Source: Thermococcus sp. M39 (GTDB lineage Archaea; Methanobacteriota_B; Thermococci; Thermococcales; Thermococcaceae). Taken from it: a stretch of 64,000 nt of DNA. The notes under the pieces are model-generated. The model had not been told where the DNA came from. It worked only from the letters and a program-made list of their open reading frames with translations, and made no database searches. Location of the stretch: assembly GCF_012027325.1 (NCBI RefSeq), contig NZ_SNUG01000003.1:1-64000 (forward strand), read 5' to 3'. This document shows positions 55,345 to 59,474 of this stretch, piece by piece. Each line of letters starts with the position of its first letter. Positions within the stretch are counted from its first letter, which is position 1. The translations under genes and the position numbers were made by a program.

Positions 55345-55368
55345 TTGTGTAAAGAGGAGGTGCGAAAT

Positions 55369-55971
55369 ATGGAGTTCGAAGCAATTGGGGCATATGCAAA
55401 ACCTATACTAGCGCTTGCTGTTTTAATCTATATTGTGTACATTTTTGTCATTAAAAAAGAGGAGTTCAAAAAATCCCAAGTTGTGGCAATCTCAGCTGTT
55501 ATGACAGCTTTAGTAACAGTTGCGACAATTGTGATTCAAGTCCCAACACCACCAACAAGAGGTTATATCAACCTTGGAGATACAATGGTCATGCTGAGCG
55601 GTGTGCTGTTTGGACCGCTGGTTGGAGCATTCGCTGGAGGTTTTGGTTCAGCTTTGGCAGATGCAATCACTGGCTATGCCCACTGGGCACCTTTTACATT
55701 GATAATCAAAGGTCTTGAAGGATTAGCCGTCGGATATATAGCTTACAAGAGAGAAGACTTCACAGGGATACTCATAGGAACAATAGTCGGTGGATTCATC
55801 ATGGTCTTTGGATACTTCCTTGTTGAGGTGTTCTTCTATGGCTATCCGAGTGCTATAGTTGAAGTCCCAGGAAATACTCTTCAAGCAGTCAGCGGAATAA
55901 TAGTCGGAGGAGGATTGGGGTATATAATAAAGAAAAGGTACTCAGACATAGTAAGTCTCATACAAACCTAA
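55369..55971 (+). CDS. ECF transporter substrate-binding (S) component
   Basis: Membrane protein of 200 residues with about six helices, of the ECF S-component type: INLGDTMVMLSGVLFGPLVGAFAGGFGSALADAITGY is the characteristic long motif (helices 2-3). S components capture vitamins such as biotin, thiamin, riboflavin or pyridoxine, and work with a shared ATPase/T module encoded elsewhere. Start at ATG 55369, six bases after GGAGGTG. Specificity cannot be read from sequence. Confidence 0.85.
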   Translation: MEFEAIGAYAKPILALAVLIYIVYIFVIKKEEFKKSQVVAISAVMTALVTVATIVIQVPTPPTRGYINLGDTMVMLSGVLFGPLVGAFAGGFGSALADAITGYAHWAPFTLIIKGLEGLAVGYIAYKREDFTGILIGTIVGGFIMVFGYFLVEVFFYGYPSAIVEVPGNTLQAVSGIIVGGGLGYIIKKRYSDIVSLIQT

Positions 55972-56249
55972 ACTCTCTGTATCTCCTCCCATACTTCCTT
56001 TTCTTTGAAGAGAAGCTCTATTGATATTCTTCTTGAGGCCCTCTTAAGCTGTCCCAAGTATTGGGAGTCTGCAATCACGGCATCAGAGTTAAGCTCCTTT
56101 ATCTCATAAACAGCAAGTCCGCAGTTCTGAAGTATATCTGCCGCATACTTAAGAAATTCTGGTCCAGCGAGTATTATATCCGGATTTAGGCCTTCCTCTT
56201 TGAGCTCTTCGATAGCAGCTTTTAGGAGATCATAGAGCTCTTCCTTCAC
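55968..56249 (-). CDS. Family 4 (A-domain) encapsulin-like protein, DUF1884
   Basis: A 93-residue protein that I match to DUF1884 of Pyrococcus/Thermococcus, the truncated HK97-fold (A-domain) proteins classed as Family 4 encapsulins. Visible pattern: N-terminal helix ([20 protein letters not shown]), [50 protein letters not shown]. It starts with GTG whose last bases are the DeoC stop (GTGA), so the two are translationally coupled. Family 4 genes have been reported beside DeoC as presumed cargo. Recognition is from memory of the family; a fold search would settle it. Confidence 0.75.
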
Positions 56250-56902
56250 TTTTTGGCACCCTCCACGATCTTTACCCCACTTGAGGTACCGATTCTGTTT
56301 GCCCCTGCCTTAATCATTTCTAAAGCCTGCTCGTAAGTCCTTATTCCTCCGGCAGCTTTAACCCCAAGCTTATCCCCAACAACCCTTCTCATCAGCCTAA
56401 CATCTTCCACTGTAGCCCCTCCGGTTCCAAAGCCCGTTGAAGTCTTTACAAAATCAGCTCCAGCCTCCATTGCTAGCTTACATGCTATCTTCTTCTCTTC
56501 ATCTGACAGATAGCAGGTTTCAATGATTACCTTAACTATTGCTCCTTTCTCGTGAGCAACTTTGACAACTTCTTCTATATCCCTCTTGACGTAGTCATAA
56601 TCCTTATCTTTCAATGCCCCAATGTTTATGACCATATCAAGCTCATCAGCACCATCTTCAAGCGCTTTTTTTGCTTCAAAGACCTTAACCTCTGTAGGCG
56701 TTGCACCTAGCGGAAAGCCTATAACCGATGCGACCTTTATGTCTGTGCCCTTCAATTGCTCCTTTGCAAGTTTTACGCGGTAGGGATTAACGCAGACAGC
56801 ATAAAAGTCGTATTTCTTAGCTTCCTCGCACAGCTTGATTATATCTTCCTTTGTTGCATAAGGCTTCAAATTGGTGTGATCAATGTACTTGGCAATATCC
56901 AT
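56246..56902 (-). CDS. deoC: Deoxyribose-phosphate aldolase
   Basis: TIM-barrel class I aldolase, 218 residues, cleaving 2-deoxyribose 5-phosphate into acetaldehyde and glyceraldehyde 3-phosphate. The Schiff-base lysine is in FVKTSTGFG and the second catalytic lysine in [22 protein letters not shown] supplies the catalytic aspartate region. ATG 56902 follows GGTGATGCTT. Ends inside the start of the encapsulin-like gene. The short C-terminus ([12 protein letters not shown]) could be the contact with the shell, but no cargo peptide consensus is visible. Confidence 0.94.
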
Positions 56903-57008
56903 AAGCATCACCAAATTAAGTAGTTCCTTCGTATATTTAGGACTTTTCCTTCAGATATGAGCAGTTTTTAATTAAAAATTGGAGACCTATAGCGAAATTT
57001 AAACAAAT

Positions 57009-57201: not shown

Positions 57202-58128
57202 CTACTCTTGCGGCTCAGGCTTTTTAAAGCGCCTATAAATATTCCTGCCAATCAAATAAAGCACTGCAAATGGAGATATTATTATCAGCAGGGCAAGAAT
57301 GCCCTCAATTACCATGAGCAGTATTGCCACAGCTTGATATATTGTTTTTCTGAAGCCTAAATCAATCTCGAACACAGGCTTTTCTTTGCTCTCTATTGTG
57401 ACGTGATAGGTTATATAATCCGTGACTTTCTCATAGTAATCCTTCTGGAGATACAAATAGTTTAAGCGGGAGTTTATGCTGCTTATTCTGGATTCAATCC
57501 TCATCAAATCATCAATGTCCTTTGAAAGGTTGTAGAATTCGAGGAGCTTATTTTTCTCAGCCTCTAGACTTTCAATTTCAGCAAGAATTTGGTTGTATTT
57601 GCTTGTTACATCTTGAGTATCCAAGCGGAGGCTTTTGACGTTGTATTTCTCCAGAAGTGTCCCAACTTTATTTTCATTTTCTACCGTGTTTGGAATCCTA
57701 AACTCAATGTAATAAACAACCCTTTCTTCACTCTTGTCAAGATTTTCAGAAATTACATATCCCCCCAAAGAATATACCTCAGCTTTTATTTCACCAGCAA
57801 CTTTCTCTGGACTCTCGTCTTGGATAACAACATAATAGTCCTTTTTCAGCCTTTGGATTATTTCCTGTGGCTTTTCATATCCAGTAGTTCCTACCGAAGT
57901 TTGGGTGGCAGTTGGCTTTGTATAAGTCGGAGCGTATGCCATCGTTTGAGTGTATGTAATCCTTTCAGCCTCAATGTCCCAACCTTTCTCTTCATAAACC
58001 GAGGGTTGGTACTTCGGCTCACTCCCAACTCTAAAAGAAGCTCCGCTCTGAAAAACCTTTGAGACAACAAACCCAGCGACTATTATCACCACAACCAAAA
58101 GAACTACCCCAATATTTCTTTTATGCAT
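57202..58128 (-). CDS. DUF4349 membrane-anchored protein
   Basis: A 308-residue surface protein: N-terminal signal-anchor helix (IGVVLLVVVIIVAGFVVSKV), a Thr/Tyr-rich linker (TQTMAYAPTYTKPTATQTS), the DUF4349 domain with a coiled coil (LAEIESLEAEKNKLLEFYN, about residues 185-225), and a C-terminal pair of helices ending in a basic tail NIYRRFKKPEPQE. ATG 58128 follows GGTGAGAGCT. DUF4349 proteins are of unknown function, thought to sit in the cell envelope. Confidence 0.85.
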   Translation of the reverse strand: MHKRNIGVVLLVVVIIVAGFVVSKVFQSGASFRVGSEPKYQPSVYEEKGWDIEAERITYTQTMAYAPTYTKPTATQTSVGTTGYEKPQEIIQRLKKDYYVVIQDESPEKVAGEIKAEVYSLGGYVISENLDKSEERVVYYIEFRIPNTVENENKVGTLLEKYNVKSLRLDTQDVTSKYNQILAEIESLEAEKNKLLEFYNLSKDIDDLMRIESRISSINSRLNYLYLQKDYYEKVTDYITYHVTIESKEKPVFEIDLGFRKTIYQAVAILLMVIEGILALLIIISPFAVLYLIGRNIYRRFKKPEPQE

Positions 58129-58177
58129 AGCTCTCACCGAAAATATTACTCATGATTACATTTAAGGGTTGTTAAAG

Positions 58178-58212: not shown

Positions 58213-59442
58213 TCAACGCATTTTTCTCCAGATTAAAGGCAAAATAGAAACTAAGCCTAAGAATGCAGGGCCGCAGATTGTTCTGGAGGAAGTGGTTGGT
58301 GACAATGGCGAATACTCCGAAGTTGTTGTAGGGGATGATGCTATCTTCACTGTTCCCTTCGGCAATTTATAAGCTAACGGCTCAGCAGTGCACTTTAAAA
58401 GCTTGGCATCTTTGCTCTCAAAGTAGGGAATCCACGCATATCTTCCATCCTTGGTTTCATACCAGCCGATGTGGGAGTTGTAGCCAGCATAGCCCCTCTT
58501 TGCAACTTTCACAATCTCTTCAATGTCTTCATCACTTATATTCAATATTCCAGTATCTTTGAGCCATTTAATTTCAACTCTCAGCGCTTCTTTAAAGTTA
58601 AATGTGTAGGGATCAACAACTCCTTCAGGCATGTTAGCAACTTTTCTCTCAAACTTCACGTTTTCAAAAGCACATTTGATGCCCAGAGCATCAAATAGGG
58701 CATTAAGCGGTTCCCTATCTTTTTCTGTCAGCTCCTCTCTGTTGTAAACGAAAATTCTAACATCAGCTTTTCCGCTTCTCAAAATCTTTGATGGGTCAAC
58801 TCCATGCTCCTTTAAACAATTGAGTACAGCTGAATTCGGCTTCCAAGAGCAGATTCCATTCACACAGCCGCAGCTTGTAAGCTTCAAACACTCATACCAG
58901 TCCTTGTAAACACAGATTGAAACCACTTTACCTGCGTTTTCTCTGGTTGTGCATATCTCTCCAGAGCATCCTCCTATGGCACAGTCTGAATCAGAGGAAC
59001 ATTCATTCCCCCTCTGCATCTCAAGCTGCACGAGATAGTTGCCCTTTGTGAAATAATAGACGTCCCTAGATTCTGAGTAAGTAACATTCCACCCAAGCCC
59101 TCCAGCTTTTTTGAGCATGTCGTCAGTTACCAAGATTAGCGCTGAGAGGTTAGCTCTTAAATAAGTTGAATTCCAGCTTTTTACGGGAATCTCAATTCTT
59201 AGATGCAATCCCTTATCATCCCATAGCATAACAGCCACTCTTTCGTCATAATGGGAGCGATAAATTAGTCTTCCATCTTCAATTGAGACATTTTCCGCAT
59301 TTTTAAGCGGCTCAAGATTGTATACAATTCCAGGCTTGTTGAAATAAACCTCTACAGCCAAGTTATCAGTTGGGCTAAAGCATGCCTGAGCGAAAGGAAG
59401 TACTGCTAAGATTAAAATGAAAATTATAGCATGTCTTTTCAT
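58213..59442 (-). CDS. CGP-CTERM-anchored, eight-cysteine surface protein
   Basis: A 409-residue exported protein: signal peptide (IIFILILAVLPFAQA), a cysteine cluster in the middle (NECSSDSDCAIGGCSGEICTT to SCGCVNGICSW; about eight cysteines in 60 residues), a C-terminal helical domain, a Ser/Thr linker, then CGPAFLG, a hydrophobic helix and WRKMR. That end is the CGP-CTERM sorting signal found in Thermococcaceae. Start at ATG 59442 after AGGTGGGAATT. The cysteine cluster probably forms disulfides outside the cell. Function unknown. Confidence 0.85.
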   Translation of the reverse strand: MKRHAIIFILILAVLPFAQACFSPTDNLAVEVYFNKPGIVYNLEPLKNAENVSIEDGRLIYRSHYDERVAVMLWDDKGLHLRIEIPVKSWNSTYLRANLSALILVTDDMLKKAGGLGWNVTYSESRDVYYFTKGNYLVQLEMQRGNECSSDSDCAIGGCSGEICTTRENAGKVVSICVYKDWYECLKLTSCGCVNGICSWKPNSAVLNCLKEHGVDPSKILRSGKADVRIFVYNREELTEKDREPLNALFDALGIKCAFENVKFERKVANMPEGVVDPYTFNFKEALRVEIKWLKDTGILNISDEDIEEIVKVAKRGYAGYNSHIGWYETKDGRYAWIPYFESKDAKLLKCTAEPLAYKLPKGTVKIASSPTTTSEYSPLSPTTSSRTICGPAFLGLVSILPLIWRKMR

Positions 59443-59474
59443 AATTCCCACCTAGTTCTAGTTAATGCTCCCAA

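What the first reader, a model, noticed from the sequence alone, without database searches (positions are those of the whole stretch)
55968..56902. DeoC translationally coupled to a Family 4 encapsulin-like A-domain protein
Seen: a 93-residue protein starts with GTG that overlaps the deoC stop (GTGA). Known: Thermococcales DUF1884 proteins are reduced HK97-fold A-domains, classed as Family 4 encapsulins, and deoxyribose-phosphate aldolase is one of the enzyme types found beside them. Inference: the pair forms a small protein compartment or scaffold around an aldolase that releases reactive acetaldehyde, a possible reason for enclosure. Few such systems have been studied in the lab.
Basis: partly seen in the sequence, partly recalled or inferred. 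Interest (0 to 1): 0.85.

Follow-up and report, generated by a model that had tools for sequence, protein, structure and literature searches.

The report
DeoC gene with A-domain encapsulin-like partner
A heat-loving archaeon makes a sugar-phosphate aldolase (DeoC) together with a tiny protein shaped like one piece of a virus shell; the pairing was described in 2021, and comparing 94 related genomes shows that each gene persists without the other in some lineages, which argues against a compulsory compartment around the enzyme.

Summary
Window 56246-56902(-) encodes DeoC. A 93-residue ORF, 55968-56249(-), starts at a GTG that overlaps the deoC stop and has a Shine-Dalgarno-like GGAGGG just upstream. 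The small protein is Pfam ENCP4 / NCBIfam encap_f4b. Its AlphaFold model matches 2PK8 and then many HK97-fold capsid proteins (TM about 0.5). The DeoC-type Family 4B operon was already described by Andreas & Giessen 2021 (PMC8346489).

Data from 94 genomes of the order weaken the compartment reading. The small gene follows deoC in all 76 genomes that hold both (one copy is broken), and it is under purifying selection. But it has been lost about six times behind an intact, equally constrained deoC; clear remnants persist in three genomes, one of them the window genome's nearest relative in the tree. In the Pyrococcus-like genus, deoC is absent and the small gene persists, separated from GAPDH and in one genome cut off by an opposite-strand permease. 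DeoC has no conserved cargo tag, and the protein lacks the other HK97 shell domains.

Best reading: a dispensable, co-translated A-domain accessory or scaffold protein, not an obligate shell around DeoC. Binding to DeoC is not shown. The 'GAPDH operon' class may be a rearrangement by-product.

The parts
55968..56249 (-). 93-aa Family 4B A-domain encapsulin-like protein (ENCP4, formerly DUF1884); GTG start
   Evidence: PF08967 1.3e-26; NF041191 2.1e-42; AF2 pLDDT 88.6; 2pk8 E 6e-7, then HK97 capsids TM about 0.5
56246..56902 (-). deoC, deoxyribose-phosphate aldolase, 218 aa from ATG (in-frame TTG at 56914)
   Evidence: TIGR00126 3.5e-91; solved DERAs to 5.8e-83; D89, K153, K182 in every sequence
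56246..56249 (-). GTGA: start of the small gene overlapping the deoC stop
   Evidence: overlap of the two ORFs in 73 of 76 genomes
56257..56264 (-). Shine-Dalgarno-like GGAGGGTG inside the deoC 3' end, 7 nt before the GTG
   Evidence: sequence; SD-like match of 4-5 nt in most linked genomes
56931..56947 (-). BRE/TATA-like AAAGTCCTAAATATA upstream of deoC, likely promoter of the pair
   Evidence: sequence; same kind of motif at about -45 of deoC in the other genomes of the genus; inferred
55345..55971 (+). ECF riboflavin-type S component, convergent, stop overlaps the stop of the small gene by 4 nt; conserved neighbour, not shown to be part of the system
   Evidence: PF07155 2e-39; convergent neighbour in 78 of 84 loci with the small gene by tblastn, and a convergent membrane ORF in the same place in the five of the other six inspected

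Best explanation
This is a DeoC-type Family 4B (A-domain encapsulin-like) two-gene operon. SHOWN: the small protein is a real, selected gene of the HK97-A-domain family, expected to be translated from the deoC message by overlap and an internal Shine-Dalgarno sequence, and dispensable to DeoC over evolution. INFERRED: it forms small A-domain oligomers (dimers or rings), and it holds, stabilises or locally clusters DeoC as an open accessory scaffold rather than enclosing it in a shell. Its benefit is conditional, so it can be lost. In the Pyrococcus-like genus it was kept although deoC is absent, so it must also have a role, or a partner, other than DeoC.
For: Family and fold. Gene pair conserved 76 of 76 with overlap and SD. 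Purifying selection on the small gene (omega about 0.02-0.2). No full HK97 shell architecture (93 aa). No conserved DeoC tail as targeting peptide, and the same tails without the small gene. About six losses behind intact DeoC. DeoC constraint unchanged by the loss (median omega 0.023 vs 0.024; 0.040 vs 0.047). Presumed catalytic residues kept in all 80 DeoC sequences. Recombinant T. kodakarensis DeoC is tabulated as an active enzyme with an optimum of 95 C (PMC6244999 citing Rashid 2004).
Against: No binding of the two proteins is shown by anything here. Loss of the gene with no change in DeoC also fits a protein that never touches DeoC. A P. furiosus proteomics study (Menon 2009, as cited in PMC8346489; not readable here) reports a stable complex of GAPDH with the A-domain protein, so a tighter enzyme association than I infer is possible.
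Confidence: 0.45

Rival explanations
1. The small protein works independently of DeoC (its own target or partner); deoC is simply the gene with which it shares a message in most genera.
For: It persists in all 8 Pyrococcus-like genomes in which it was found, none of which has deoC. It is lost elsewhere with no trace on DeoC. It evolves 2-4 times faster at amino acid level than DeoC.
Against: 76 of 76 adjacency with conserved overlap across four genera is hard to keep without a functional or regulatory link.
Confidence: 0.3
2. One reading: a closed protein compartment of A-domain subunits around DeoC that contains acetaldehyde.
For: HK97-like fold; enzyme-shell gene pairing is typical of encapsulins; PMC8346489 raises enclosure and sequestration of reactive intermediates as one possibility.
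Against: No cargo tag. Shell-forming domains are absent from a 93-aa protein. Dispensable in about six lineages with intact DeoC. DeoC alone is active. Present where there is no deoC.
Confidence: 0.1
3. The small protein is a factor for glyceraldehyde-3-phosphate enzymes in general (DeoC makes it, GAPDH uses it), binding either enzyme.
For: The two reported Family 4B partners share this metabolite, and a GAPDH complex was reported in P. furiosus (cited in PMC8346489).
Against: GAPDH is never its neighbour where deoC is present. In G012 an opposite-strand permease separates the two. In the other seven genomes the genes are 63-85 nt apart without coupling. PMC4706686 lists gapdh PF1874 as a singleton transcription unit.
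Confidence: 0.1

Closest known systems
DeoC-type Family 4B A-domain encapsulin operon (Andreas & Giessen 2021, PMC8346489)
   Same: Same family (PF08967 / NF041191), same gene order (enzyme upstream, small gene directly downstream), same hosts (Thermococcales)
   Different: Nothing in this locus; the repeated losses, the Pyrococcus rearrangement and the lack of a DeoC tail are additions from this work and are not in the parts of that paper I read
Family 4A A-domain protein PF0899 (PDB 2PK8)
   Same: Same fold (Foldseek E 6e-7, TM 0.68, 29% identity over the aligned part)
   Different: 4A sits by sulfhydrogenase or OsmC; 4B has a conserved C-terminal helix (residues 77-92) beyond the end of the window genome's 4A protein
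Classical (Family 1) encapsulins and HK97-fold phage capsid proteins
   Same: A-domain fold, TM about 0.45-0.55
   Different: The full fold has an N-arm, E-loop and P-domain, closed shells and targeting peptides; here only the A-domain. No Family 1 encapsulin (PF04454) in this genome

Membership tests
Family 4 (A-domain) encapsulin, subfamily 4B | PF08967 / NF041191 match above curated cut-off | tested here: met
   93 vs cut-off 31.4 bits; 143.4 vs 90 bits; below cut-off for 4A (35.1 vs 90)
Family 4 (A-domain) encapsulin, subfamily 4B | About 100 aa with HK97 A-domain fold only | tested here: met
   93 aa; AF2 pLDDT 88.6; top hit 2pk8, then mostly HK97 capsid proteins at TM about 0.5 with weak E-values (0.09 and up); V/A-ATPase stalk subunit E and FliH rank 2-4 with TM 0.40-0.44
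Family 4 (A-domain) encapsulin, subfamily 4B | Encoded directly downstream of an enzyme gene of a known type (DeoC or GAPDH for 4B) | tested here: met
   Behind deoC with 4-nt overlap; 76 of 76 genomes
Family 4 (A-domain) encapsulin, subfamily 4B | Self-assembly into facets and complex with the enzyme (a hypothesis in the defining paper) | not testable with these tools
   No multimer prediction or wet-lab work available
Encapsulin nanocompartment in the strict sense | Full HK97-fold shell protein | tested here: not met
   93 aa, A-domain only
Encapsulin nanocompartment in the strict sense | Dedicated cargo loading, e.g. a conserved terminal targeting peptide on the cargo | tested here: not met
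   DeoC ends are short and variable and look alike in genomes with and without the small gene; a non-terminal loading surface is not excluded
Encapsulin nanocompartment in the strict sense | Icosahedral self-assembly | not testable with these tools
   No assembly prediction or electron microscopy available
DeoC (class I deoxyribose-phosphate aldolase) | TIGR00126 equivalog and conserved catalytic Asp/Lys/Lys | tested here: met
   304.4 vs cut-off 117.3 bits; D89, K153, K182 in 80 of 80 sequences; catalytic assignment by homology to E. coli DeoC, from general knowledge

The most novel reading that the evidence does not exclude
Family 4B A-domain proteins have no fixed cargo enzyme. The DeoC pairing is ancestral and dispensable, the 'GAPDH operon' of Pyrococcus is a by-product of a rearrangement after deoC loss, and the protein has its own, undescribed cellular function in Thermococcales.
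Probability: 0.3. Interest if true: 0.55.

Novelty: already known. Interest (0 to 1): 0.38.

Why it matters
Family 4 is the least understood encapsulin-like family, and its status as a compartment system rests on gene neighbourhood and fold. The natural loss series (intact gene, partial remnant, clean loss, all with intact DeoC) and the deoC-free Pyrococcus-like lineage give ready-made comparisons to decide whether these proteins enclose, scaffold or ignore their neighbouring enzymes. They also caution against reading every enzyme gene next to an HK97-like gene as cargo.

Tried and rejected
Closed-shell reading: rejected as main explanation (see rivals). Designed pentatricopeptide proteins as PDB matches: rejected, since they only repeat a short [15 protein letters not shown] stretch. 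V/A-ATPase subunit E and FliH as fold relatives: better E-value than the capsids but lower TM and larger rmsd; kept as a caveat. Own promoter of the small gene in the Pyrococcus-like genus: TATA-like matches lie at -41 to -51 in all eight genomes, but individually they do not clearly exceed shuffled sequence, so this is only suggestive. PHROGs scan of the 61 relatives gave no capsid family. Menon 2009, the source of the GAPDH complex claim, is not held. Joint structure prediction of the two proteins was not possible with the tools.

Full report
WHAT IS THERE. On the minus strand, deoC (56246-56902) is followed at once by a 93-codon ORF (55968-56249) whose GTG start overlaps the deoC stop as GTGA. 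A GGAGGGTG lies 7 nt before the GTG, inside deoC. The downstream ORF is Pfam ENCP4, described as 'Putative type 4B encapsulin shell protein' (1.3e-26), and NCBIfam encap_f4b (2.1e-42; the 4A model stays below its cut-off). The upstream ORF is DeoC (TIGR00126, 3.5e-91), with solved relatives to 5.8e-83. The genome has a second ENCP4 gene, of 4A type, behind an OsmC-like gene (OsmC named by eye), and no Family 1 encapsulin.

FOLD. An AlphaFold model from 61 relatives (pLDDT 88.6) matches 2PK8 of P. furiosus (E 6e-7, TM 0.68). Most of the next matches are HK97-fold phage capsid proteins and an encapsulin at TM about 0.45-0.55 (individual E-values only 0.09 and up, probabilities up to 0.97). V/A-ATPase stalk subunit E and FliH rank between them with lower TM. 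The protein is an A-domain only, plus a conserved C-terminal helix (residues 77-92).

ALREADY KNOWN. Andreas & Giessen 2021 (PMC8346489) define Family 4, its 4A/4B/4C split, and four archaeal operon types including DeoC for 4B. They discuss stabilisation or sequestration of intermediates as possibilities. Of enzyme complexes they cite only the GAPDH one from P. furiosus (Menon 2009, not readable here). No later experimental work on Family 4 was found in the held library.

THE PAIR ACROSS THE ORDER. g3 is called Pyrococcus-like because it lacks deoC and has the small gene by GAPDH, as reported for Pyrococcus; this is an inference. In 94 genomes, 76 hold both deoC and the 4B gene, always deoC first and the 4B gene directly behind it; 73 of these overlap. 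In one of the 76, G084, the 4B gene is broken. Eight g3 genomes have the 4B gene and no deoC. Six genomes have deoC and no 4B gene. Four others, all incomplete drafts, lack the 4B gene and have no deoC or only a fragment. No match to the 4B profile was seen in the searched genomes of the same phylum outside this family. Median dN/dS is about 0.04-0.2 for the 4B gene by genus (single pairs down to 0.02) and 0.03-0.07 for deoC; at amino acid level the 4B gene changes 2-4 times faster.

LOSS BEHIND AN INTACT deoC. Behind deoC in G088, the window genome's nearest relative in a deoC+ECF tree (93/89 support), only the last ~38 bases of the 4B gene remain (alignment score 51 vs at most 28 in 500 shuffles). 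G079 keeps mainly the 3' third. G084 has a clean internal deletion with frameshift, while its sister G083 is intact. G074, G086, G077 and G093 have lost it essentially completely, and deoC there converges directly on the ECF gene. On the tree this reads as six losses (my count by eye). DeoC constraint is the same in pairs with and without the 4B gene, and the presumed catalytic residues are invariant in all 80 DeoC sequences. G084 is a draft assembly, but G088, G074 and G079 are single-contig genomes. The intact 4B genes of g5, the genus with most losses, sit on a very long branch (1.57 changes per site).

THE 4B GENE WITHOUT deoC. In g3 the 4B gene is still convergent with the same ECF-type gene as in the window, but GAPDH lies upstream. 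The gap is 63-85 nt in seven genomes, without overlap. In G012 a permease on the opposite strand lies between GAPDH and the 4B gene. The homologous permease (67.6% identity) is tail-to-tail with GAPDH in the window's own genome. This suggests that the block of 4B gene and ECF gene came to lie beside the GAPDH-permease block and that later loss of the permease made GAPDH its neighbour. A promoter-like AT-rich element lies at a similar distance before the 4B gene in g3, but individually it is not clearly above composition. PMC4706686 lists P. furiosus gapdh PF1874 as a singleton transcription unit.

NO CARGO TAG. DeoC ends directly after its last conserved segment; the few extra residues are variable and look the same where the 4B gene is missing. 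Recombinant T. kodakarensis DeoC is tabulated as an active enzyme with a 95 C optimum (PMC6244999 citing Rashid 2004).

MECHANISM. Shown: family, fold, gene coupling, selection, dispensability, persistence without deoC. Inferred: small A-domain oligomers that act as an optional, open accessory or scaffold for DeoC in most genera (confidence 0.45). The main rival is a protein with its own role that merely shares the message (0.3). A closed, acetaldehyde-retaining shell is least supported (0.1), because the connecting domains of HK97 shells and a cargo tag are missing and because DeoC has done without it in about six lineages.

VERDICT. The operon type is known, and the proposed compartment is not supported by the comparative evidence. 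The losses and the Pyrococcus rearrangement are useful additions that make the function of Family 4B testable.

Noticed in passing
55345-55971 (+): An ECF riboflavin-type S-component gene converges on the 4B gene with a 4-nt stop overlap. The convergent partner is kept in nearly all loci of the order, including the deoC-free genus.
   Followed up: partly
L001:1495-1779 (-), G000:C2:341685-341960: The second ENCP4 gene (4A type) lies behind an OsmC-like gene and overlaps a convergent downstream gene at its 3' end.
   Followed up: no
g5 genomes: loci L095, L096, L101, L103, L107, L108, L109: Intact 4B proteins of this genus are on a very long branch (1.57 changes per site), in the genus where the gene has been lost most often; possible relaxed or changed function.
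   Followed up: partly
58213-59451 (-): 412-aa cysteine-containing protein ending in a CGP-CTERM-like tail (TICGPAFLGLVSILPLIWRKMR); surface anchoring is likely.
   Followed up: no
57202-58137 (-): DUF4349 protein (PF14257) upstream of the deoC pair, with hydrophobic stretches near both ends by eye.
   Followed up: no
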